Origin: Candidatus Zhuqueibacterota bacterium
GTDB taxonomy: Bacteria > Zhuqueibacterota > QNDG01 > JABMRT01
Reading direction: 5' to 3'
Assembly (NCBI GenBank): GCA_013202295.1
Contig: JABMRT010000106.1
Location: 1 to 64,000 of the forward strand
DNA length: 64,000 nt
Part shown: in pieces, positions 35,163 through 55,827 of the stretch
Position numbering within the stretch: the first letter of the stretch is position 1
Layout of the letters: each line of letters opens with the position of its first letter
The notes under the pieces: model-generated
Told to the model about the DNA's origin: nothing
Seen by the model: only the letters and a program-made list of their open reading frames with translations
Databases searched by the model: none
Made by a program: the position numbers and the translations under genes

Positions 35163-36527
35163 TTAAAAATGATAGACTATTCCCGCGAGTACACGATCTG
35201 TTTCAATGGTTTCCTTTGTACCACCCGGTGTCCATCCATCTTCACTGTACCGTTTCCAGGAGCCATGGCTGACAGAGATATTAAAAGATGTAGAAGGATC
35301 GATATCATATCCGATGCCCCCACTGAGTGTTGTGCGATTCATAGATTTATCAGCTTCAGCAAGCGAAGAAGGTGTGACCTGATATCCACCGCGCAGCCGC
35401 ACATTCGGACCGGTAAATCGAAACTCTCCTCCGACACTCCATGACAACACATCACGAAAATCAGTAGTAAACGTTTGATTCTCTGCAAGTAAATCCTGAT
35501 AATCATAAGACAGGCCATATTCATCCGGTCTTTCAAACTTAGTATCCGTCCAATCGCGGTAGGAGGCAGAAGCAGCCAGGAGCAGTCTTTCAGAATCAAT
35601 TGCCAATCCGCCCGACAATTTACCAGGATAACGAACCGCATACTCCCATTCACCGGTTCCAAAATCCATCATGGATTCATATCCATCATCAAAGATCAGC
35701 AAATCATTCGAAGAGTATATTTCATGAACATTCAGCTTGCTTGGAAAATCATAAGAAACACCGGCGCGTAGTTCATCACTCAGATGAAAAAGTCCACCGA
35801 TTGAGACTCCCCCACCGGAAAATTCGGAATCAATCAACTGGTTCAATTGATAATAATCGTAATTGGCCGGGTAGCTCTCATAAATCTGATCGAAATCTTC
35901 CTGAGTAAATGCAAATGCATATCGATTGGCTCCAGTGTAGACATGAAAGGAAAGGCCGATTGAAAATTGAGGAGACAAAGCCAATCCACCACCAAACGAC
36001 CAGGCTCCCAGATTGCCGCTTTGAAGAATCTCTTCAGTTTGCCAGACATTACGATCGAACGGAAAATATTCAGCCTCCTCTTCGCCCAGATCAAACTCGA
36101 GACCATTACTATACCCGTTAAAACCACTAAACGACAGGTAATCATCATAATTCTTGAAATTATGACGTCCAATTGCAAGTACAAAACTTCCCCGCGATGT
36201 GGGAAATTTATAGGCCAGACCAAACTCTTTAAACTCAGTGAATGCATCATTTCCCATCTGCACTTCACCGCCAAATGTGGCATTGTTCGTGAATTTCGTA
36301 TGATAAAACGCACCTGATATTTCACTGGTTTCAAGTAATGTTAACCCCGCCGGATTCCAGTACAACGCAGACCAGTCATCAGCCACTGCAGTAAACGCGT
36401 TTCCTAAACCTTGTGCACGAACACCGCTGCCAGTTTCATTATCCAAAAAAGCGATAGCTTCTCCGGGAGATTGAGCAAGGATTTGAACAGTAAAAATCAA
36501 GCTGAATAGAAGAATAAACCGTTTCAT
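35163..36527 (-). CDS. OmpP1/FadL/TodX-like outer membrane protein
   Basis: GVRAQGLGNAFTAVADDWSALYWNPAGLTLLETSEIS; C-terminal VLAGIVYHF barrel end. Confidence 0.82.
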   Translation of the reverse strand: MKRFILLFSLIFTVQILAQSPGEAIAFLDNETGSGVRAQGLGNAFTAVADDWSALYWNPAGLTLLETSEISGAFYHTKFTNNATFGGEVQMGNDAFTEFKEFGLAYKFPTSRGSFVLAIGRHNFKNYDDYLSFSGFNGYSNGLEFDLGEEEAEYFPFDRNVWQTEEILQSGNLGAWSFGGGLALSPQFSIGLSFHVYTGANRYAFAFTQEDFDQIYESYPANYDYYQLNQLIDSEFSGGGVSIGGLFHLSDELRAGVSYDFPSKLNVHEIYSSNDLLIFDDGYESMMDFGTGEWEYAVRYPGKLSGGLAIDSERLLLAASASYRDWTDTKFERPDEYGLSYDYQDLLAENQTFTTDFRDVLSWSVGGEFRFTGPNVRLRGGYQVTPSSLAEADKSMNRTTLSGGIGYDIDPSTSFNISVSHGSWKRYSEDGWTPGGTKETIETDRVLAGIVYHF

Positions 36528-36566: not shown

Positions 36567-37775
36567 TTATCGACGTCTCCCTTTTGAAGAGGACGAGGAG
36601 CTTGAACGACTTCCCCCCGAAGATGATCCACTGGACCGGCTGCTCCCGGACGAGGAGCCACTGGATCGGCTTGGACTGGATGACCGCGAGGAAACAGACG
36701 GCGTCGATTTACTGGAGCTGGAAGAGGACGGCGTTCGTTTTACCGATTTGCCAGAAGAAGACGATCTGGATGTCCGGTTGTTGCTTGACACTTTGGGCCG
36801 GGAAGATGTACGTTTTGTCTGTTGTACTGCTTTTGATGTGCTTCTTACAGCATCACGAGTCCGTTGCTTGACAGCAGTACTTCTGGAGGAAGATGCGTTT
36901 TGCCGATCATTTTGACTCCGGCGTGTATTTTCACGGACCTTTGATTCTGACTTGGATTGAGATCCGGAACGTCGGTCGGCTATCCTTCTTCTGGTATTAC
37001 TTGTGGAACTTGAACGCTGACCGTTGTTTTGATCCGTACGGCGATCTGTTATGCGACGTTCACTTGGCGGATCAGGACGAATATCCCGTATGGTTGTGGG
37101 CCGACGACGGGTAGATCCTCGTTCATTCGTCTGATCAGATGTTCTTGGGTTGGATTGATCCCGTACAGCCACAGCTCGACGTCTATTTGGATCTGTGGTA
37201 CTGTTCGATCCTTCTCGGCTTCGACTGGAGGGAGGAATTGCAGTTCTTCGGGCGAATTGTCTTTTTTCATTTGAACTTCCGGAATAATTACCCGGAGTGC
37301 TGTAGTATGGATAATCATAATAAGGATGATGATAGTATGGCGAATAATATGCGTAATACGGCGCATGATGCCAATAGGGATAAGGTTCGTAGTGACAGTA
37401 GGCATATGAGTTATAATACCAGGGATCCCAGTAGCAGTCATAATACCAGGGATCATCCCAAAAGCTCACCCAGAAATAATTGGAATAGTATCTGGTTCGC
37501 CAGGTAGGACCGAAATTGAGATGCACAACAACACCCGGATCACAATCTTCAACCACATAGTGACGCTCATGCAGCACCATTCCCGGGTCTCCGGATAGCG
37601 TATCCTCATACGACTCCACAGTTGTAACGCTATAGTTATCCGAATACATGTCATAGGATTCGTAATTGGATGACGTATAACCGGTCTTTGATGCAGCGAA
37701 TGTAGTATAACATCCACTCACTAGCAATCCATAGCCAAACATGACAATGGAAAGGATGAATAGTCTAACTTTCAT
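36567..37775 (-). CDS. Lipoprotein with Tyr/Trp/His-rich segment and long Ser/Arg-rich tail
   Basis: ATG at 37775 with GGAGG RBS; lipobox LLVSGC; low-complexity C-terminal half. Confidence 0.7.
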   Translation of the reverse strand: MKVRLFILSIVMFGYGLLVSGCYTTFAASKTGYTSSNYESYDMYSDNYSVTTVESYEDTLSGDPGMVLHERHYVVEDCDPGVVVHLNFGPTWRTRYYSNYFWVSFWDDPWYYDCYWDPWYYNSYAYCHYEPYPYWHHAPYYAYYSPYYHHPYYDYPYYSTPGNYSGSSNEKRQFARRTAIPPSSRSREGSNSTTDPNRRRAVAVRDQSNPRTSDQTNERGSTRRRPTTIRDIRPDPPSERRITDRRTDQNNGQRSSSTSNTRRRIADRRSGSQSKSESKVRENTRRSQNDRQNASSSRSTAVKQRTRDAVRSTSKAVQQTKRTSSRPKVSSNNRTSRSSSSGKSVKRTPSSSSSSKSTPSVSSRSSSPSRSSGSSSGSSRSSGSSSGGSRSSSSSSSKGRRR

Positions 37776-37815: not shown

Positions 37816-38184
37816 CTAATGACGTGTGAATGTCCTGCGGTGTCCTGATTGACTGGATCTAGTGTCGTCTGTGTCATTGCTGGATGTTTCCTCTCGTTTG
37901 GACATCTCACGTTTCTGGTAATCATAGCTACTGCTATGATCCTCTATCTCTTCACACTCTATACTCAATGCAACACCTGCATGGATGAACAGATCAAACC
38001 AATATATTTCTTCATCAATCATCTCAGCCTCTACCTCATATGGTGCTTCAAACATGGAAAAACAAATATCCATGACAGTTAAACAGGCAGATCCGTACGA
38101 AGAACAGTTTGTCAAGCTAAATGACAGCATAATCAGTGATGAAATAAGTAGGATTTTTTTTGCATGCGGCACGACTGCCTCCAT
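37816..38184 (-). CDS. Small hypothetical lipoprotein
   Basis: MEAVVPHAKKILLISSLIMLSFSLTNCSSYG lipobox. Confidence 0.5.
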   Translation of the reverse strand: MEAVVPHAKKILLISSLIMLSFSLTNCSSYGSACLTVMDICFSMFEAPYEVEAEMIDEEIYWFDLFIHAGVALSIECEEIEDHSSSYDYQKREMSKREETSSNDTDDTRSSQSGHRRTFTRH

Positions 38185-38416
38185 ACCGATTAATTGATTC
38201 GAGCAACTAATAGACAAAGGCTGTGCCACGGATTTAGAAAATGCCACAAGCTATTTATAATTGGTATGTTGGATGTTTTTATAATCCGCTAAATAAATGG
38301 AGAGGAAGGTGTTTTGATTATCTTGTTTACAGAGAATTGCTTACTTTGTTTACACTTGCCCGATTTTACTCAATGTTATTTTAAGCAGATTGAATTAATC
38401 AACAAACATGAATTCG

Positions 38417-38552: not shown

Positions 38553-39989
38553 TTAAATTTTAATCTGATAACGCTCCAGTTTTTTATGCAGCCCCATTCG
38601 GCTCAAACCCAGTGTTTCGGATGCCCGAGATATGTTTCCTTTATGCATCTCAAGTGCTTTTTGGATCAGTTGCTTTTCAAGCGCTTCAACCTGTGTTTTT
38701 AAATCAGTATCCAGAGAAACTGGGGAGGAACTTTCAGACTTGTATACATGAAAGCGATGCGACAATAGTTCCGGCGTAATTTGCTGATTCGGCTCAGCAA
38801 GGGTCACTGCGCGTTCGATTTCATTCTCAAGCTCACGAATGTTCCCCGGCCAGGGATAATTCTGAAATAGGTTCAATACTTCTGGAGTAAATCCTTTCAC
38901 TGTCTTATGCAGTCTGTTACAATTCTTCAGGATGAAGTGATTCATCAAATCCGGGAGATCTTCAATCCTGTCTTTTAGAGGAGGCAAATGGATGGGAAAA
39001 ATATGAAGCCGATAGAACAGATCCTCACGAAAGCGTTTTTCCCGGACTTCCACCTCAAGATCTTTATTGGTGGCTGCGAGAATACGCACATCAATATGCT
39101 TGACCTGATCACCTCCCACGGGTTTGATCTCCCCCTCTTGCAGTACGCGAAGAAGACGTAACTGCATAGCCGGAGAGGTGTCTCCCACTTCATCCAGAAA
39201 GACAGATCCGCCTTCAGCCTGTTCGAATAATCCCTTTTTATCAGAAATCGCTCCCGTGAACGCTCCCTTCACGTGGCCAAACAATTCGCTTTCAAGCAGC
39301 GTATCCGGAAGCGCGCCACAATTCTGTGCGACAAAGGGTTTGTCCTTTCGAGCTCCGCTGCTGTGGATGGCTCTTGCAAGAAGTTCTTTGCCTGTTCCGG
39401 TATCTCCGAGAAGTAAAACCGTGGTGGGCGTATCCACAATTTTAGAAGCGAGTTTATAGGCCTTTAACATGCCGGGACTTTGACCAATTACTTCTTTAAA
39501 ACGAACATCGTGCACAATATTTTGACGGAGGGTTTTATTTTCATCCCTGAGGTGCAGATTGAGCTCTTTTAATTGCTGAGTCAGCTGCTTGTTTTCTTGA
39601 ATCAGGCTGTACCGTTCTTCTGCTTTTTGGATGATAAGTAACAACTCATCCGGCTCCCAGGGCTTGGAAATATAATAATAGATCTGCCCCTGATTCACAG
39701 CTGCGATGGAAGCGTCGATATCCGCATACGCTGTGATGAGAATACGAATCGTGTCAGGTTGCAATTCGATGGATTTTGAGAGGAATTCCACACCAGTCAT
39801 ACCGGGCATACGCTGATCCGATATCAGGATTGAAATCGGATTTCCTTTCATTAAATCAAGAGCCGCCGCGCCATTATTTGCTTTATAGACCTGGTATTGA
39901 TCTTTAAGTAGCCTCTCAAGAGAGTGCAACACTTCAACTTGATCGTCAACCAGAAGTATAGTCGGTTTATTAGGGCCTTTACCTATCAT
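38553..39989 (-). CDS. NtrC-family sigma54-dependent response regulator
   Basis: Receiver ILLVDDQVEVLHSLERLL...ISDQRMPGMTG; AAA+ with GAFTGA; C-terminal Fis HTH NISRASETLGLSRMGLHKKLERY. Confidence 0.93.
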   Translation of the reverse strand: MIGKGPNKPTILLVDDQVEVLHSLERLLKDQYQVYKANNGAAALDLMKGNPISILISDQRMPGMTGVEFLSKSIELQPDTIRILITAYADIDASIAAVNQGQIYYYISKPWEPDELLLIIQKAEERYSLIQENKQLTQQLKELNLHLRDENKTLRQNIVHDVRFKEVIGQSPGMLKAYKLASKIVDTPTTVLLLGDTGTGKELLARAIHSSGARKDKPFVAQNCGALPDTLLESELFGHVKGAFTGAISDKKGLFEQAEGGSVFLDEVGDTSPAMQLRLLRVLQEGEIKPVGGDQVKHIDVRILAATNKDLEVEVREKRFREDLFYRLHIFPIHLPPLKDRIEDLPDLMNHFILKNCNRLHKTVKGFTPEVLNLFQNYPWPGNIRELENEIERAVTLAEPNQQITPELLSHRFHVYKSESSSPVSLDTDLKTQVEALEKQLIQKALEMHKGNISRASETLGLSRMGLHKKLERYQIKI

Positions 39990-42900
39990 GCTTCTTTTTT
40001 CCTCTCATTTGGCAGATATACAGTAAACCGGCTGCCCTTACCTTCTTCACTATCAAATGTAATTTGACCACTGTGATTTTTAATAATGGAGTATGAGATG
40101 CTTAGTCCAAGACCCGTGCCCTCTCCCACGGGTTTGGTAGTAAAGAAAGGATCAAAGATACGTCCCTGATCTTTCTTCAGGATACCCATCCCATCATCTT
40201 GAAATGAGATCTCAATTCCCTTCTCCATTTGCTCGGTCCGGATCTGAATTATTCCTTTTTTTGGAATGGCCTGCGCAGCATTGGAAAGCAGGTTTAAAAA
40301 AACCTGATTCAATTGACCCGCATTGCCGGTTATTTGCCTTTTTACATTATAGAATTTCTTGATTTGAATCCGGTTTTTGAGCTGCGGACGGAGAATCATC
40401 AAACAAATATCCAAACCTTCATGCACATCGCACTCTTTCCATTCAGCCTGATCCAGATGTGAAAATTTTCTTAAATTATCCACAAGTACTTTTACGGACT
40501 GACTGCCTGTGATCGTATCCTGAATCAATCCCTCAAGATCGGGGAGCAGCTTTTCAAGATCTTTTTGAAGTGTATCGGATTGAACCGCTTTTTCAAGACG
40601 CTGGATATAACGATTCAATTGTTTGATATTGCCGTAAATAAATCCGACTGGATTGTTCAACTCATGTGAAATACCGGCCACAAGTTGTCCGAGTGAAGCC
40701 ATTTTCTCTGATTGGATGAGCTGCATTTCTGTCTGTTTCAATTCATCAAACAAATGCTGAAGTTCCTGATTCTTTACGTCAAGCGATGCGTTCGCATCTT
40801 CGAGCTGTCTGAGGTATTTTTCTCTTACTTTCGCTTCAGTCAGCTGTTTGACCATGGCATTGGATTTTCGAATGAACGCATTGTTCTCGATAGAAATGGC
40901 CATCTGATTCGCCATGGAGGAAAACAGAGAGTGATCATCGGGATTCAAGGAGGCAAACGGGCCTTGTGTACCCAAAGTGAGTATGCCATAAATATGATTC
41001 TCACGTGTCATGGGAATCACCAGATGCGCATGGCACAATTCGAAGAGCGGTGCCAGACTCGAGTACTCGGATGTTTGGAGGATGGGTTCTCTCAACAGCA
41101 GTTCTTTGTTTTGAGTAAGGTTTATTCTGGCCTGCATTTCTGTTTTAGAAGTTTGGATTCCCTCACACACACCTTTTCGAAATTGAAGTGTTTTCTGATC
41201 AACCAGCCAGGCGCATACAGTATCAAATTCAGTATGCTCTCTCAATGTGAGTACCAGTGTATGCAGAAGCTTTGTATTGTCATGGATATGCACAATTTCC
41301 TGGTTGAGCTGAATCAAGACACCCCGGTATCTTCGCCGGATACGGTCAGATCGAGCAAGCCGTTCAGAATAAAATGAAAAGATCAGGATGGAGATAAATG
41401 TCAGAATGTTTACAGTTGACAAAGCGGTCATACGCCCGAGAGGTTGAAGCACAGTCAAGATGAGAACGGCCATGAAAAAATATCCCACAGCAAATCCAAT
41501 AGTGGTTGCCGGACGCCAGAAATATCGCCGTAATCCAAATACCATAAACAGAGCGGTTTGCACAATAAACACCAGGAAAAGCAAAGCTTCAATCCAGAAA
41601 CGCGATGAATAGACTTGATGAAGGATACGCTGATAAGCACGAATGAGACCGTGACGTATTCCGCCATATTCCGCGATGTGATACCTGTGTCCTGCCGACA
41701 ATCCTCTTCGCGTAATAACTTTGCCTGAAGTGAAACGGAACACCGCATCCACGGATCGGACTGTATCCAATCCAAAATGCACAACCGGATCATCCATGGA
41801 TAAATAACCGTTTCCACCTGATATTTCCCGACATCCCAGTAAGGTTGGATTTCGTGAGAATTGACCGGATTTATAGATCTCAATCCGGGTGCCGATACCA
41901 TCGCGATTTGACAGAACTCCTTCAATTTGAAATTGAATATATCTATCATCATTTAATGGATTCTCATATAAAATACAGAATGTGTCCTTATTCGCGACGC
42001 AAAGATCCATGTCTCCATCAAGGTCATAATCAGCCGATGCGGCGGCAGTGCTGTACCCGATCAAAGCTCCCCGCGTGTTGGAAGGATCACGGTAAACCTC
42101 GTCAAATCGCTCTCCATTGACATTAAGATAGCATATATTCGAACCAATATTGGTTACAAACAAATCCAGCCAGCCATCATGATTGAGATCCAGAAACTTA
42201 CACGAATAGGACGGCCCTGTGGCTGTGATTCCGAAAGGTTCGGTGACATCGGTAAATCGCCATGTGGTGTCACCTTGGGTGAATTCATTTCGATAAAGAA
42301 AATCCCGTCCACCACGATGTGTCACGAAAAGATCATAATCCCCATCATTGTCTATATCTGAAAAACTGACGCCATTGGTATTGATCACCTTTTGGCAAAC
42401 TTCAATATCAATGGACGACCGATGGAAAACTCCATTACCCTTATTTCGATACATCAAATCCGGACCAAACCAATTGGTCACATACAAATCCGGATCGCCA
42501 TCCAGATCGATATCGCAAAACGAAGCACTTTGACTGACACCATTATACTGCAAACCTGCGGATGCGGTCTGTTCAGTGAACAGTTCCTGACTGTTTTGCA
42601 CAAAAAGCCGATTGGTAAAATGCTCATCGGTGAGGAAAAAATCCAATCGGCCGTCAAGATTCACATCCGCAACCGCGATTCCGTTTGCGTCAATCGTTTC
42701 GTTGAGGATCTCTTTTAAAGTCATATCCTTAAATATGAATTGACCATTATTGTAAAAGAATCTGGTCGTGATACTGCCCCAGCCCGCGATAAGAATTTCA
42801 GGAAGACCATCATTGTCAAAGTCAGCAGATGCAGTGCCAAGCTCCAGGTTGGACGTACCATGAGGCATCAGGTTACCACCCAAACCGGATTGAATCGTGG

Positions 42901-43159
42901 CATCATCAAAAGCAATTCCGGAACCACGATTTACAAGCAGTCGATTGAGCGATCGAAAACCCACCAAATAAAGATCTGGAAATTGATCTCCATTCATATC
43001 ACGGAAAGCGATGCCGTAGCCATCATTGATGTCAGGCAGCAGCGGCTCAGAGGGTGGCCGTTCAAACATCTGAACCACAGTGCTGTCGCGGAAATCTGCG
43101 CCATGCAGGAACGGGATGGAAACACATAAATAAATAATAAGTGTACGGAGAATCGGCAT
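39986..43159 (-). CDS. Sensor histidine kinase with extracytoplasmic FG-GAP/VCBS repeats and ASPIC/UnbV domain, TM region, GAF, HisKA-HATPase
   Basis: Seven DxDxDGxxD-type repeats (e.g. DIDLDGDPDLYVTN, DYDLDGDMDLCVAN); UnbV-like YIQFQIEGVLSNRDGIGTRIEI...GGNGYLSMDDPVVHFGLD; H-box KMASLGQLVAGISHELNNPVG; N/G boxes. Confidence 0.9.
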   Translation of the reverse strand: MPILRTLIIYLCVSIPFLHGADFRDSTVVQMFERPPSEPLLPDINDGYGIAFRDMNGDQFPDLYLVGFRSLNRLLVNRGSGIAFDDATIQSGLGGNLMPHGTSNLELGTASADFDNDGLPEILIAGWGSITTRFFYNNGQFIFKDMTLKEILNETIDANGIAVADVNLDGRLDFFLTDEHFTNRLFVQNSQELFTEQTASAGLQYNGVSQSASFCDIDLDGDPDLYVTNWFGPDLMYRNKGNGVFHRSSIDIEVCQKVINTNGVSFSDIDNDGDYDLFVTHRGGRDFLYRNEFTQGDTTWRFTDVTEPFGITATGPSYSCKFLDLNHDGWLDLFVTNIGSNICYLNVNGERFDEVYRDPSNTRGALIGYSTAAASADYDLDGDMDLCVANKDTFCILYENPLNDDRYIQFQIEGVLSNRDGIGTRIEIYKSGQFSRNPTLLGCREISGGNGYLSMDDPVVHFGLDTVRSVDAVFRFTSGKVITRRGLSAGHRYHIAEYGGIRHGLIRAYQRILHQVYSSRFWIEALLFLVFIVQTALFMVFGLRRYFWRPATTIGFAVGYFFMAVLILTVLQPLGRMTALSTVNILTFISILIFSFYSERLARSDRIRRRYRGVLIQLNQEIVHIHDNTKLLHTLVLTLREHTEFDTVCAWLVDQKTLQFRKGVCEGIQTSKTEMQARINLTQNKELLLREPILQTSEYSSLAPLFELCHAHLVIPMTRENHIYGILTLGTQGPFASLNPDDHSLFSSMANQMAISIENNAFIRKSNAMVKQLTEAKVREKYLRQLEDANASLDVKNQELQHLFDELKQTEMQLIQSEKMASLGQLVAGISHELNNPVGFIYGNIKQLNRYIQRLEKAVQSDTLQKDLEKLLPDLEGLIQDTITGSQSVKVLVDNLRKFSHLDQAEWKECDVHEGLDICLMILRPQLKNRIQIKKFYNVKRQITGNAGQLNQVFLNLLSNAAQAIPKKGIIQIRTEQMEKGIEISFQDDGMGILKKDQGRIFDPFFTTKPVGEGTGLGLSISYSIIKNHSGQITFDSEEGKGSRFTVYLPNERKKEA

Positions 43160-43416: not shown

Positions 43417-44484
43417 TTAGTCCCAATTTTCAATTAAACGTTCGATAAAATCTCCGAATGATGACTTACCTCTGTCTTTAAATTTCAAGTATTCCTCACG
43501 TAATACAAAACCTATGGGCCCTTCATAAATACCACCAATTTGCCAGACATCATAGACGCGAATAGCAATAGTATTCGGACGGTCCCACTTTAAAGCATTG
43601 GGTGTGATATAGTAAAATCGGTCTTGATTGAAATAAGAGCTGTTTTTATCAATATAGAGTTCACCAGGAAAACGGCCGGTTCGGCCGATACGCTCTCCGT
43701 TTATATAAACTTCATCGATATCATCGATTTTTCCTAGTACAAGAAGAACCTTCTCATCTTTGAGTGATGGATCCGGAACAAATGTTTTTCGATACCAACC
43801 ATATCCATCATAATCGGGATAACCATAATCCGCCCAGGTCGCAGGAACCATGACTTCATCCCAGTTGCTATCGTCCGCATTGGATTCTTTCCAATTCATA
43901 TCGTCACCAAGGGTAAAAAGCCACGCACCCGATAGATCCTGGTTCATTCTCAATCTTTTTTCGGCATAAATTCCAACACGGCCACCCACCAGACCTCCAT
44001 CCCCTTCTTCATCGTAAACCTGAATGGCAATTGTATTTTCATCATCGAATTTTAAAAGAGATTGCGGCAATGGATAAAAACGTCTCACATTAAAAGCCGT
44101 TGAATAGGGATCAACAATACCTTTCCCGCTTAAATGTTTACCATTGACATAAACACGATCCACATCATCGATGTATCCAAGGTCTATCCCAAGAGACAAA
44201 TTTTTCAATTTCGAAGGAAGCATGAATGTAATTCGGTACCAACCATATCCATCATAACCCGGATACCCTTGTCGTTCCCATGAGCGTCCGGGTCTGATCA
44301 GGGTCCATTCAGAATCATCATATTCAACCAAAGCATATTCGGGATCATTTCCGATTTGAAATTTCCATTTTTTATTTAAACTCAATTTCATTACCCTATC
44401 GGAGCCCATCAAAGTTGAAGAAATTCCGATAAGTACAATGAGCAGAAATAGGGTTCTGATGGCTGCTTGTCGCGTTGTTGACAT
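43417..44484 (-). CDS. Secreted protein with duplicated GH2-type sugar-binding (jelly-roll) domains
   Basis: Two copies of W(K/L)F...GYP.YDGYGWYR.TF...IDD.D.VY(V/I)NG...NTIAI.VYD. Confidence 0.8.
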   Translation of the reverse strand: MSTTRQAAIRTLFLLIVLIGISSTLMGSDRVMKLSLNKKWKFQIGNDPEYALVEYDDSEWTLIRPGRSWERQGYPGYDGYGWYRITFMLPSKLKNLSLGIDLGYIDDVDRVYVNGKHLSGKGIVDPYSTAFNVRRFYPLPQSLLKFDDENTIAIQVYDEEGDGGLVGGRVGIYAEKRLRMNQDLSGAWLFTLGDDMNWKESNADDSNWDEVMVPATWADYGYPDYDGYGWYRKTFVPDPSLKDEKVLLVLGKIDDIDEVYINGERIGRTGRFPGELYIDKNSSYFNQDRFYYITPNALKWDRPNTIAIRVYDVWQIGGIYEGPIGFVLREEYLKFKDRGKSSFGDFIERLIENWD

Positions 44485-49434: not shown

Positions 49435-50517
49435 ATGAAAGAGAAAGATTTAAAACTATTTGCGGGAGTATTTCTGGCACTTTTAATACTCTTTTTTATC
49501 ACCAAACCGAGACATACTTCTGTAAATCTGGATGAATTCGTCCAGAGTATATTGATCGGAATTACTGCCGAGGATGTGGCGGAAGTTGAAGTCTATAAAG
49601 AGACCGGTGCGGAAGAACCCCCACGCTTGATCCTCAATCGGATTGATGAACAATGGTGGATTCCGACCCATTTTAACGCAAAGGGCCAAAAAACCCGTAT
49701 CGAACAATTGCTTAAGGATCTCATTGAAATGACAGGCAAAGTGCGATCCGAGGATGCCAAACATCATGAGATGTATGGCATCCTGGATGAGCAGGGCATC
49801 CATTTGATTCTGAAGGATGAGACTGGCAAGCCGCTTGCAAACCTGATCCTTGGTAAAAAGGGTGAAGACTCCGGCTCGGGATTTATTCGGTTTGCAGGAA
49901 AAGAAAAGGTTTATTTCACAGACAAGGATCTGCTTACTTCACTGAATGTACCTACAAACGCGGATACCATGACCCATTTCAAAGATCGCGCCTTTGTGGA
50001 TCTTAAGGCCATTGATGAGAAAAAAGAAGATCTGGTCGAAGTCGCGATTTGTAAGGATCGTGTACAGCGTCACATTAAAAAGATGGAACGCGAGGTCGAA
50101 GTCGAAGTTAATGACTCGACAACCACAATACAGAAAGAAACGTATTGGGTGCTGGTAAAAGGTGGTCAGGAAATTGAACTGGATCAGAAAGAAATTGATA
50201 AATTCTTAAGCGACGTGACCAGCATCCATGCATCCCATGTGGTGGATCGCATGGGTGAAAACCCTCTGGAAGCTCAGCTTTCTAACAAGCCTCGTCAATA
50301 TGGTCTCGAGTTCCGCAATCCGAAAACATATATGGTTTTCAAGCCAGCAGATGGAGAGCAGAAAAACATCTACTTTGGTAACGAATATGAAAAAGACAAG
50401 GGCTACTATCTTTATATGCAGGAAGACGGCCTGATCTATAAGGTGAACAAATCCAACTATGACAAGATATTCAAATGGGTGGATGACTTGCCGACGAAAG
50501 AAAAACAAGAAGAATAG
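49435..50517 (+). CDS. DUF4340 protein
   Basis: Single N-terminal TM; position after gldG-like gene; LNRIDEQWWIPTHFNAKGQKTRIEQLLKDLIEM. Confidence 0.8.
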   Translation: MKEKDLKLFAGVFLALLILFFITKPRHTSVNLDEFVQSILIGITAEDVAEVEVYKETGAEEPPRLILNRIDEQWWIPTHFNAKGQKTRIEQLLKDLIEMTGKVRSEDAKHHEMYGILDEQGIHLILKDETGKPLANLILGKKGEDSGSGFIRFAGKEKVYFTDKDLLTSLNVPTNADTMTHFKDRAFVDLKAIDEKKEDLVEVAICKDRVQRHIKKMEREVEVEVNDSTTTIQKETYWVLVKGGQEIELDQKEIDKFLSDVTSIHASHVVDRMGENPLEAQLSNKPRQYGLEFRNPKTYMVFKPADGEQKNIYFGNEYEKDKGYYLYMQEDGLIYKVNKSNYDKIFKWVDDLPTKEKQEE

Positions 50518-52428: not shown

Positions 52429-55400
52429 TTAGAAAAATGCCCGTACTTCAACCTGTCCGGTTTGGAACAACTGCTTGCGCCACGGTTCCTGGCGACCGCG
52501 ATAGGTTACTGTACATTGCACATGTCCGGTGACGCGATACGTGAACAGCATATTCCAGCGTATTGTTCTGCCGGGCTGGTCGCCGCTCAACATCTCATAA
52601 GGCAGTGAGACATCTATCGGATCGGTTGTCACATTGCCAAACTCCATTTCTGCGCGAAGATGGCCCTTCATCCGAAAGGCATAACTGAACCTGGGAAGTA
52701 GAAAAAATGAGAATGCCTTTGTATGGTAATCAGGAAATTTGTCTTCTGACTGTCGAATCTGTGTTTTCAAAGCAAATTCGATTTGTTGCCTGGGCCGATA
52801 GGAAACTTCTCCGGTGAACGTCTGAATCTCAATATCACGATCCGATCTCAAGGCATTCTCATAATCCTTGTCATCTGTACGCAACCCATATTCAGCCAAC
52901 ATGCCAAGAGATCGTACTGGATTCAATTTCAGGCGGACACTTTTTTCATCGGTCAGGTGCACCTGACCTTCCTGAGCCAGCTGATGATTCTCGGAGTCAT
53001 TGTTCTGATATAACAGTCGCAATGACATCCAGCCGCCCGTGGGTGAGTATTCAATATCCTGATAAATTGAAAACACACCAGTAACCACGGTACTGTCACT
53101 TCCCCAGTCTGGCTGAAAAGCAGATTTATTTACAGCCCTGAAGTTTTCGGCACGATCCCGGCGTTCAGTGCGAAATCGTGTACGTCCCTTTAGGTTGGAG
53201 AAGATGGATTTGAGATGCTTCCTGCTCTTAAACAGACCTGATCCATCCCAGCGCAACTCAAGACCGGTTTTAAGGTCGTTGACCGGAATGAATTCTCCTG
53301 TCTGGATCATACGAATCAGAAGATCCCCATCCGGATCGGGGATTAATTCATTCAAAGTTTCATCGAATCTGTAATTACCGAGCCCGGGACCGACTTGAAT
53401 GGTGTCGCGTACCATCTCGGAAACTTGTGTGGATGAAAACTGATAATTCAATGTGCCATCCACGAGCCGGGGTCCCAGAGAGAACCGCATCTTCATATCT
53501 GCCAGGTCCGCGATTTGATCCTTGAATCCCGGATCGACGTAATCGCGTGTGCGATGTGTGAACATGATTGAAGTGGAATAGTTCGGGCCTAAATTAAGTT
53601 TCATACTTATACGATCGGTGCGTGCTTTGGAGTTTGGCTTGAGAAGATTTGATTCATATTGCCGATCGTCCCGCATGGTTTCCTCTGCCAGAAGTTGTAT
53701 CGGACCCAGATCCACTCCCATTCCGCCCCGCCATTCTTCGAAGCGAAATCCCGTGGTCAGCGTGTCTCCCAGTACTTGTTTTCGATGCTCCCCTTCATAG
53801 GCGATGGTAGGCCTCAATCGCCAGAGCCCAGCCTCAATCCGGCCGTTTTGTCGCTTCCATTCGCCATCCCCTGTCGAACCATTTTTAGTATCAATCCACT
53901 CATTCTGAAAATTGAACCGCGGCAGACCCTTTTGATCGAGCCGGGTGGAAATCAATTTACGGTCGGATTGAAATCCTTCTGTTCTGGAGAAGTTGCCCAT
54001 CTCGCCGGTAATCTGCCAGTTTGCAAAGGGCCGATATGTGGCCTGCGCTTCCCTGGAATCCTCACCCCAGACACGGCCCTCCTCCGTGCCCCACTTGCGG
54101 CCGTGCTCCACATCAGACATCCGACCCACAGGGCGATACTGATCCCCAACATGCCGTAGCTGGAGATTGAGGTCCATTTGCCCGAATGACTTGCCAAACC
54201 CGCGAAGGGCTGTGTCTTTCATGTTGAATACGGAACGATAGGCCTGATCGGTATTGTCCCCATCATCGAGGGCCGAGAACTGATTGAGATCCTGATTGCT
54301 TATGGCCGCCTCTCCGGATAAAGAGATGTTTTTGCTGAGATGGATTTCTGTGACGGCATTTGCCATCTGATGTTTTCGCGCCAGAGGAAGCAATATCACA
54401 GGAAGATACGTACCCAGATGTGCACCTTCATATCGATAGATGCCGTACCCTTGAAAGCTGTAATCGCCCTTACCGTATCCGACATGCGAAAACCGGACAC
54501 CGTAGTCGCCATTGCCCTCGCCCACATATTTATAAATCACCTGATCCAGGGTGTCAATTTGGATGTAATTTCCTTTTCCTTCTCCCAGATAATTCCCACC
54601 GGAAACAACCGCCGAATCCGGATTATCACCGGCTGATTCAAGCGCGGACAAATACGCATCCGTGATTGGAAATTCAATGGGATTGTCTTTATTGTCCGAT
54701 TCCTGAAGGAAGGAAGTGCGGAACTCAATCCGGTCGTTCCAGAATCGTGCATTGCCCTGTGCACCGTAAACACTTTTTTGAAATTTCTGATCCGAGTATT
54801 CAAAATCCACGGTAATGCGGGAGTCCCCTGTGATCAATCGATTCCGCGTGAACGTGATCTGTCCCAGACCATACTCGATCACATAATCATGATCCTCTCC
54901 GCGTGTCATGGTTTCACCGTCGATCCAAATGCGTTCTGTGCCCGCCAGCACAATGATATCCTGCTGCCCCTCGTTACCCGTCAATTGATACGGCCCCTGA
55001 GTGCCCTCCTGCCCGATGAAATGATTTGTCGTGAACTCTCCCTTGGAAGCCGCACCCATCAAGGTCACCGATCCCATATTGGATTCTGCAGTGGCCATTC
55101 CGCCTTGCAGTTTTCGGGAATACGTCCCGAAATAAGATCCGCCGGATTCGTACATAAAATCACCCATTGTGGCCTGAAAGTGAGGAGCAAAGATATTTAC
55201 GAATACCTTGTCAATTTCCTGCAGGGATTGTGTATTGCCTTCAGGCTGGATGGGTGTATTCTGATCGGTCAATGAGGCCACGACTTCCACATCCGGTGCA
55301 ACCTTGCCTGCTACCTGCAATCGCAACCCGGATTGTAATCGCATGCCTTGATTTGTGCCTAGAGAGATACCGCGAAAAATGGAGCCGCTACGCTGAAGCG

Positions 55401-55827
55401 ATTCATCTCCATACGCGACCGACGTGCCGGATTGGATTGTTTGGCGAATGCGTGCGGGGTGTACCGACTCCTCCGTTGTGTCTGGTGTGGAGAGTGCCCA
55501 GCGCTGATATACCGGCCGAAGTTGAAACGGCCAGGCCTTGTACCAGACATGAATTGACACGCCGGAATCAGGCAAAGATATAAAGCGGACGATGCCTTTT
55601 ATCCAGTCAACTTGATATTGCGTATTAAGGATAGCCAAACTGTCAATTGTGATGCGAAGTGAATCCTGTATTATGAAGGGATGTTCCAGTGTGTAATCGG
55701 TATCACGCTTGGTCACTGTGAATGATTCCTCATGCACAAGTGGATCAGCAAACCGTTGTATCGTTTGTCCGAGAAGTGTCGATGCAAGCAACGACAGGAA
55801 TAGCATGTAAATGAAGGGATGTTTCAC
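52429..55827 (-). CDS. Large (1132 aa) putative outer-membrane beta-barrel protein
   Basis: Signal peptide; barrel-like alternating pattern; terminal VEVRAFF; repeated GxGxGxY motifs. Confidence 0.7.
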   Translation of the reverse strand: MKHPFIYMLFLSLLASTLLGQTIQRFADPLVHEESFTVTKRDTDYTLEHPFIIQDSLRITIDSLAILNTQYQVDWIKGIVRFISLPDSGVSIHVWYKAWPFQLRPVYQRWALSTPDTTEESVHPARIRQTIQSGTSVAYGDESLQRSGSIFRGISLGTNQGMRLQSGLRLQVAGKVAPDVEVVASLTDQNTPIQPEGNTQSLQEIDKVFVNIFAPHFQATMGDFMYESGGSYFGTYSRKLQGGMATAESNMGSVTLMGAASKGEFTTNHFIGQEGTQGPYQLTGNEGQQDIIVLAGTERIWIDGETMTRGEDHDYVIEYGLGQITFTRNRLITGDSRITVDFEYSDQKFQKSVYGAQGNARFWNDRIEFRTSFLQESDNKDNPIEFPITDAYLSALESAGDNPDSAVVSGGNYLGEGKGNYIQIDTLDQVIYKYVGEGNGDYGVRFSHVGYGKGDYSFQGYGIYRYEGAHLGTYLPVILLPLARKHQMANAVTEIHLSKNISLSGEAAISNQDLNQFSALDDGDNTDQAYRSVFNMKDTALRGFGKSFGQMDLNLQLRHVGDQYRPVGRMSDVEHGRKWGTEEGRVWGEDSREAQATYRPFANWQITGEMGNFSRTEGFQSDRKLISTRLDQKGLPRFNFQNEWIDTKNGSTGDGEWKRQNGRIEAGLWRLRPTIAYEGEHRKQVLGDTLTTGFRFEEWRGGMGVDLGPIQLLAEETMRDDRQYESNLLKPNSKARTDRISMKLNLGPNYSTSIMFTHRTRDYVDPGFKDQIADLADMKMRFSLGPRLVDGTLNYQFSSTQVSEMVRDTIQVGPGLGNYRFDETLNELIPDPDGDLLIRMIQTGEFIPVNDLKTGLELRWDGSGLFKSRKHLKSIFSNLKGRTRFRTERRDRAENFRAVNKSAFQPDWGSDSTVVTGVFSIYQDIEYSPTGGWMSLRLLYQNNDSENHQLAQEGQVHLTDEKSVRLKLNPVRSLGMLAEYGLRTDDKDYENALRSDRDIEIQTFTGEVSYRPRQQIEFALKTQIRQSEDKFPDYHTKAFSFFLLPRFSYAFRMKGHLRAEMEFGNVTTDPIDVSLPYEMLSGDQPGRTIRWNMLFTYRVTGHVQCTVTYRGRQEPWRKQLFQTGQVEVRAFF

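What the first reader, a model, noticed from the sequence alone, without database searches (positions are those of the whole stretch)
39986..43159. Histidine kinase with FG-GAP/VCBS propeller and ASPIC/UnbV sensor domain
Seen: 1057-aa ORF with signal peptide, seven Ca-binding-like DxDxDGxxD repeats, an ASPIC/UnbV-type domain, about three TM helices, GAF, coiled coil, and HisKA-HATPase, overlapping (ATGA) an NtrC-type response regulator. Established: ASPIC/UnbV with FG-GAP occurs in secreted CRTAC1-like proteins; propeller sensors in kinases are better known as Reg_prop/Y_Y_Y (HTCS). Inference: an integrin-like Ca2+-dependent sensor for a surface ligand or glycan feeding sigma54 transcription.
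Basis: partly seen in the sequence, partly recalled or inferred. Interest (0 to 1): 0.78.

Follow-up and report, generated by a model that had tools for sequence, protein, structure and literature searches.

The report
CRTAC1-like sensor histidine kinase system
A bacterium of the little-known KSB1 phylum carries a histidine kinase whose sensor is a calcium-type propeller resembling the animal protein CRTAC1, and which very probably switches on one small neighbouring operon of cell-envelope proteins; I found no description of this sensor type in the literature I could search.

Summary
The ORF at 39986-43159(-) encodes a signal peptide, a seven-bladed FG-GAP propeller with seven calcium-type loops, UnbV/ASPIC, three TM helices, GAF, HisKA and HATPase. 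It overlaps (ATGA) a sigma54 activator with a receiver domain. It is not a mis-assembly: full-length orthologues (42-49% identity) occur in six other genomes of its order (7 of 12 in all). The ectodomain's only solved sequence relative is murine CRTAC1 (9etn), also the top fold match. Kinases with this ectodomain but other catalytic cores occur elsewhere in the phylum (KSB1) and in one Flavobacteriaceae genome.

Kinase and regulator are present or absent together in all 12 genomes. In all seven carriers the regulator lies upstream of an aromatic/His-rich lipoprotein gene, usually followed by a FadL-like porin gene. In front of that operon all seven have a TGGCAY-N4-TTTGW promoter at sigma54 spacing and a pair of TGTAAAC-N3-GTTTACA-like dyads about 90-100 bp upstream. 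Best reading: a periplasmic CRTAC1-like sensor driving a sigma54 activator and a local envelope operon. The stimulus is unknown; 'surface glycan' is unsupported.

The parts
39986..43159 (-). CRTAC1-like sensor histidine kinase, 1057 aa
   Evidence: orthologues
43097..43159 (-). signal peptide, about residues 1-21
   Evidence: hydropathy; cleavage site is my inference
41960..43027 (-). seven-bladed FG-GAP propeller with seven calcium-type loops, residues about 45-400
41672..41941 (-). UnbV/ASPIC beta domain, residues about 407-496
41360..41605 (-). three transmembrane helices, residues about 519-600
40889..41275 (-). GAF domain, residues 629-757
40448..40693 (-). HisKA, residues 823-904, phospho-acceptor H832 in HELNNP
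40004..40321 (-). HATPase_c, residues 947-1052, with N, G1 and G2 boxes
38553..39989 (-). sigma54-activating response regulator (REC, AAA+ with GAFTGA, Fis-type HTH), overlapping the kinase gene by ATGA
38338..38354 (-). first dyad of the presumed enhancer, TGTAAACAAAGTAAGCA
38315..38331 (-). second dyad of the presumed enhancer, TGTAAACAAGATAATCA
38214..38228 (-). sigma54-like promoter TGGCACAGCCTTTGT
37816..38172 (-). short presumed lipoprotein gene, probable start GTG at 38172 rather than 38247 because the promoter lies at 38214-38228
   Evidence: start and lipobox are inference from sequence
36567..37775 (-). presumed lipoprotein (lipobox SGCYT), Tyr/Trp/His-rich with Arg/Ser-rich tail; probable start ATG at 37775
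35163..36527 (-). FadL/OmpP1-type outer-membrane porin

Best explanation
It is a two-component system that works like AtoS-AtoC or ZraS-ZraR, with a CRTAC1-like periplasmic input: a seven-bladed propeller with calcium loops joined to a UnbV/ASPIC domain. A change at that module (a ligand or a cell-envelope condition, possibly dependent on Ca2+ or another divalent metal) is passed through three TM helices and a cytoplasmic GAF domain to the kinase, which phosphorylates the adjacent sigma54 activator. The activator binds two dyads about 100 bp upstream of a -24/-12-type promoter and turns on the lipoprotein(-porin) operon beside it. Shown by sequence: domains, conservation, co-occurrence, conserved promoter and dyad layout. 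Inferred: phosphotransfer, DNA binding, sigma54 use, calcium occupancy. Unknown: the stimulus.
For: Complete kinase and regulator domains and motifs. Orthologues full length in 7 of 12 genomes of the order; the regulator is present in exactly the same seven, also where the genes are apart. Regulator-lipoprotein order kept in all seven, porin following in four and by contig ends probably in a fifth. Promoter TGGCAY-N4-TTTGW 36-49 bp before the start codon and paired dyads 21-23 bp apart, centred 87-99 bp upstream of -24, in all seven. RpoN found in six of the seven genomes. Ectodomain matches CRTAC1 by sequence (E=1.6e-15) and fold (E=2.7e-26).
Against: The -12 element is TTTGW, not TTGC. The promoter motif is enriched over its reversed control (105 vs 17) also in two genomes where no RpoN was detected. 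In the window the right halves of both dyads are degenerate. In G005 and G010 the kinase gene is not next to the regulator. No experiment; the porin is missing beside the operon in the genus of G004/G009.
Confidence: 0.72

Rival explanations
1. The system is a divalent-metal sensor: occupancy of the propeller loops by Ca2+, Zn2+ or Mn2+ is itself the signal, and the His-rich lipoprotein and the porin handle metal.
For: In two genera of one family the kinase gene lies just downstream of a ZnuA/ABC/ABC-3 transporter gene set, directly in G005 and with two short genes between in G010. Seven Asp-rich loops are conserved. The long lipoproteins are His-rich.
Against: No transporter gene of this kind beside the kinase in the other five genomes. 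Loops of this type are often structural (PMC3123361). FadL-type porins usually carry hydrophobic compounds (general knowledge). Lipoproteins of this composition are richer in Tyr/Trp than His.
Confidence: 0.15
2. The ectodomain recognises a glycan or other exogenous ligand, by analogy with HTCS propeller sensors.
For: Propeller sensors of HTCS recognise glycan breakdown products (general knowledge; PMC3243724 was listed, not read). A gene with GH2 sugar-binding folds lies directly upstream in the window.
Against: That gene has no counterpart near the orthologues. The genes that are conserved with the regulator are lipoproteins and a porin, not carbohydrate enzymes. A periplasmic sensor could see only imported fragments.
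Confidence: 0.1
3. The regulator beside the kinase serves mainly another kinase, and the CRTAC1-like kinase signals elsewhere.
For: Kinase and regulator genes are on different contigs in G005 and about 11 kb apart in G010.
Against: Both proteins are present or absent together in all 12 genomes, linked or not, and overlap by ATGA in the window.
Confidence: 0.07

Closest known systems
CRTAC1 / ASPIC-UnbV secreted proteins (FG-GAP_3 + UnbV_ASPIC; mouse CRTAC1, PDB 9etn)
   Same: Whole ectodomain: propeller with calcium loops followed by UnbV; only significant PDB sequence relative and top fold match
   Different: CRTAC1 and most bacterial relatives found here are not kinases; this one is anchored by three TM helices and fused to GAF-HisKA-HATPase
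AtoS-AtoC and ZraS-ZraR two-component systems
   Same: Kinase core of the same kind (AtoS model 172.8 bits; ZraS cytoplasmic domain among the best fold matches) and a REC-sigma54 AAA-Fis regulator (AtoC model 400.8 bits); promoter with upstream dyads
   Different: Far below the equivalog cut-offs; different ectodomain, three TM helices, GAF domain, -12 element TTTGW
HTCS (Reg_prop/Y_Y_Y hybrid two-component systems of Bacteroidota)
   Same: Periplasmic propeller plus beta domain feeding a histidine kinase
   Different: No Reg_prop or Y_Y_Y match; one seven-bladed calcium-loop propeller; separate sigma54 regulator instead of a fused receiver and AraC-type output
Integrin alpha propeller (calcium blades)
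   Same: Seven blades and Dx[DN]xDG loops between the first two strands of a blade (PMC3123361)
   Different: No significant PDB sequence match other than CRTAC1; no evidence for adhesion

Membership tests
HisKA-type sensor histidine kinase | HisKA with phospho-acceptor His and HATPase_c with N, G1, G2 boxes | tested here: met
NtrC-type sigma54-activating response regulator | REC, sigma54-AAA+ with GAFTGA, Fis-type HTH | tested here: met
NtrC-type sigma54-activating response regulator | paired upstream sites and a -24/-12 promoter at the target | tested here: inconclusive
   conserved in seven genomes at the expected spacing; -12 element is TTTGW instead of TTGC
CRTAC1/ASPIC-UnbV ectodomain | FG-GAP propeller followed by UnbV_ASPIC, similar to CRTAC1 | tested here: met
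Calcium-blade propeller | Dx[DN]xDG loops placed between strands one and two of the blades | tested here: met
Calcium-blade propeller | bound Ca2+ | not testable with these tools
   needs protein
HTCS | Reg_prop and Y_Y_Y domains, fused AraC output | tested here: not met
AtoS / ZraS equivalogs | score above the NCBIfam cut-off | tested here: not met
   AtoS model 172.8 vs 646; ZraS model 125.1 vs 479

The most novel reading that the evidence does not exclude
CRTAC1-like sensor kinases are an undescribed class of histidine-kinase input module, centred on KSB1, assembled once and then combined with several kinase cores (HisKA, a HATPase core without a HisKA match, HisKA_3) and regulator types; this member monitors the cell envelope and controls a local lipoprotein/porin operon through sigma54.
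Probability: 0.55. Interest if true: 0.65.

Novelty: new variant of a known kind. Interest (0 to 1): 0.56.

Why it matters
CRTAC-like FG-GAP/UnbV proteins turned up in many bacterial phyla in this scan and their function is mostly unknown. A family in which the same module is hard-wired to a kinase, with its probable regulator, enhancer, promoter and target operon identified, gives a direct way to ask what such modules recognise and whether calcium is signal or scaffold. It would also give KSB1, here represented by metagenome assemblies, a defined and testable regulatory circuit.

Tried and rejected
Mis-assembled fusion: rejected, seven genomes plus one further MAG carry it. Integrin or HTCS membership: rejected. 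A first pass with a strict TTGC -12 matrix found no good site before the operon, partly because my stretch stopped at 38240; comparing the upstream regions of the seven genomes revealed the TTTGW variant. One genome pattern search used a spacing wrong by one base; it serves as an unplanned control: 63 hits vs 38 in the reversed control, against 105 vs 17 for the correct spacing. Single dyads are not enriched genome-wide, so only the paired site is claimed; the list was cut, so a wider regulon is not excluded. Literature searches for UnbV, FG-GAP or VCBS histidine kinases found none; absence from an open-access library is not proof of novelty.

Full report
What is there. The ORF at 39986-43159 on the minus strand is real and has the stated architecture. 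Pfam gives five significant FG-GAP_3 stretches, UnbV_ASPIC at 421-493, GAF 629-757, HisKA 823-904 and HATPase_c 947-1052. The AlphaFold model (mean pLDDT 77, ten sequences in the alignment) shows seven blades between residues 47 and 398, a beta domain to 496, a helix 500-516, helices 521-545, 550-574 and 576-622, then GAF and kinase; pTM is 0.55 and the DHp region is poorly defined, so domain arrangement is not settled. Each of the seven Dx[DN]xDGxxD-type loops sits between the first two strands of a blade. Across ten proteins position 1 is always Asp, and position 9 is Asp (once Glu). The kinase gene overlaps the regulator gene as ATGA.

The ectodomain. Against all PDB sequences the ectodomain has one significant relative, murine CRTAC1 (9etn, E=1.6e-15, residues 23-461 of the query). 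CRTAC1 is also the top Foldseek match of the whole model (E=2.7e-26, TM 0.69 by target length). 'CRTAC1-like' is therefore more exact than 'integrin-like'. Loops of this type bind calcium in integrin, PilY1, a rhamnogalacturonan lyase and a fungal lectin (PMC3123361); for this protein binding is inferred.

Distribution. Full-length orthologues occur in 7 of the 12 held genomes of the order, in six genera, the window's own included, and in one further MAG labelled Deltaproteobacteria (L019). Genomes of loci titled candidate division KSB1 have the same match coordinates as genomes of the window's phylum (G018/G102 and G048/G100), so I take the phylum to be KSB1. Elsewhere in the phylum there are related but different kinases: a Ycf48-like domain + FG-GAP + UnbV + HisKA-HATPase (L099, L100; L171 by similarity), and FG-GAP (+ UnbV) + HATPase without a HisKA match (L102, L108, L023; L106 by similarity). 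One Flavobacteriaceae genome has FG-GAP + UnbV + HisKA_3-HATPase (L020). The neighbouring regulator fits the core: a sigma54 activator beside L100's gene and a LuxR-type regulator beside L020's. In a 48-row tree of ectodomains all 15 kinase rows lie on one side of a branch with SH-aLRT 97 (quick method, sampling biased towards relatives of this protein). That fits one origin of the sensor module followed by changes of kinase core, but does not prove it.

Output. The regulator has the same presence/absence pattern as the kinase in all 12 genomes, including G005 and G010 where the two genes are apart. In all seven carriers it lies upstream (within about 2 kb) of a presumed lipoprotein gene, with a GCYT-type lipobox, Tyr/Trp/His-rich and basic at the end; in the window and G001 a shorter presumed lipoprotein gene stands in front of it. 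A FadL/OmpP1-type porin gene follows in the window, G001, G007 and G010. In G005 one contig ends inside the lipoprotein gene and another ends just upstream of the porin gene, which fits the same order. G004 and G009 have only distant porins elsewhere.

Promoter. In front of the first lipoprotein gene all seven genomes have TGGCAY-N4-TTTGW, 36-49 bp before the start codon, and two 17-bp dyads related to TGTAAAC-N3-GTTTACA, 21-23 bp apart, the second centred 87-99 bp upstream of the -24 element. In mononucleotide shuffles of each upstream region a dyad pair as good is rare (0 to 0.35% of 2000). In the window the promoter is 38214-38228 and the dyads 38338-38354 and 38315-38331. This is the usual layout of targets of NtrC-type activators (general knowledge). 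RpoN was found in six of the seven genomes. The -12 element lacks the usual C of TTGC, so sigma54 use remains an inference. The motif at this spacing is enriched over its reversed control (105 vs 17), but also in two genomes in which no RpoN was detected.

How it works. Best reading: a periplasmic CRTAC1-like sensor of the cell envelope drives a sigma54 circuit that controls a local lipoprotein(-porin) operon. Metal sensing is the main rival, because in one family the kinase gene lies just downstream of ZnuA/ABC-3 transporter genes. Glycan or surface sensing lacks support. The stimulus is unknown.

Novelty. Two-component systems and CRTAC-like proteins are both known; their combination as a sensor class was not found in the literature library, and a review of kinase sensing does not mention propellers, FG-GAP, integrin or VCBS (PMC8534201). 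I rate it a new variant of a known kind.

Noticed in passing
window 43417-44484 (-): 355-aa protein with two GH2-type sugar-binding jelly-roll folds and no catalytic domain match, directly upstream of the kinase gene; no counterpart near the orthologues.
   Followed up: partly
L175, L188, L204 (also L178, L201 with one change): TGGCACACTATTTGT recurs in intergenic-looking DNA of several genomes of the order; in G003, G005, G007 and G008 it lies 9-12 kb from rpoN on the same contig.
   Followed up: partly
L012 7549-7564 (-): Canonical sigma54-like site TGGCAATGTTTTTGCA just after the kinase gene in G007, upstream of an unrelated 447-aa gene that separates kinase and regulator there.
   Followed up: no
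L019: MAG titled Deltaproteobacteria bacterium PRO9 carries a full-length orthologue (43%) and may be a mislabelled member of this KSB1 order.
   Followed up: partly
L017 909-3506 (-) and L018 45-1595 (+): Two further FG-GAP/UnbV proteins in the window's genome, not kinases by their length and BLAST match to the ectodomain only.
   Followed up: no
window 52429-55827 (-): 1132-aa protein with only a very weak match to the T9SS translocon SprA model, far under its cut-off.
   Followed up: no
window 49824-49839 (+): Best canonical sigma54-type match in the window, TGGCAAGCCGCTTGCA, inside the 49435-50517 ORF; probably chance.
   Followed up: no
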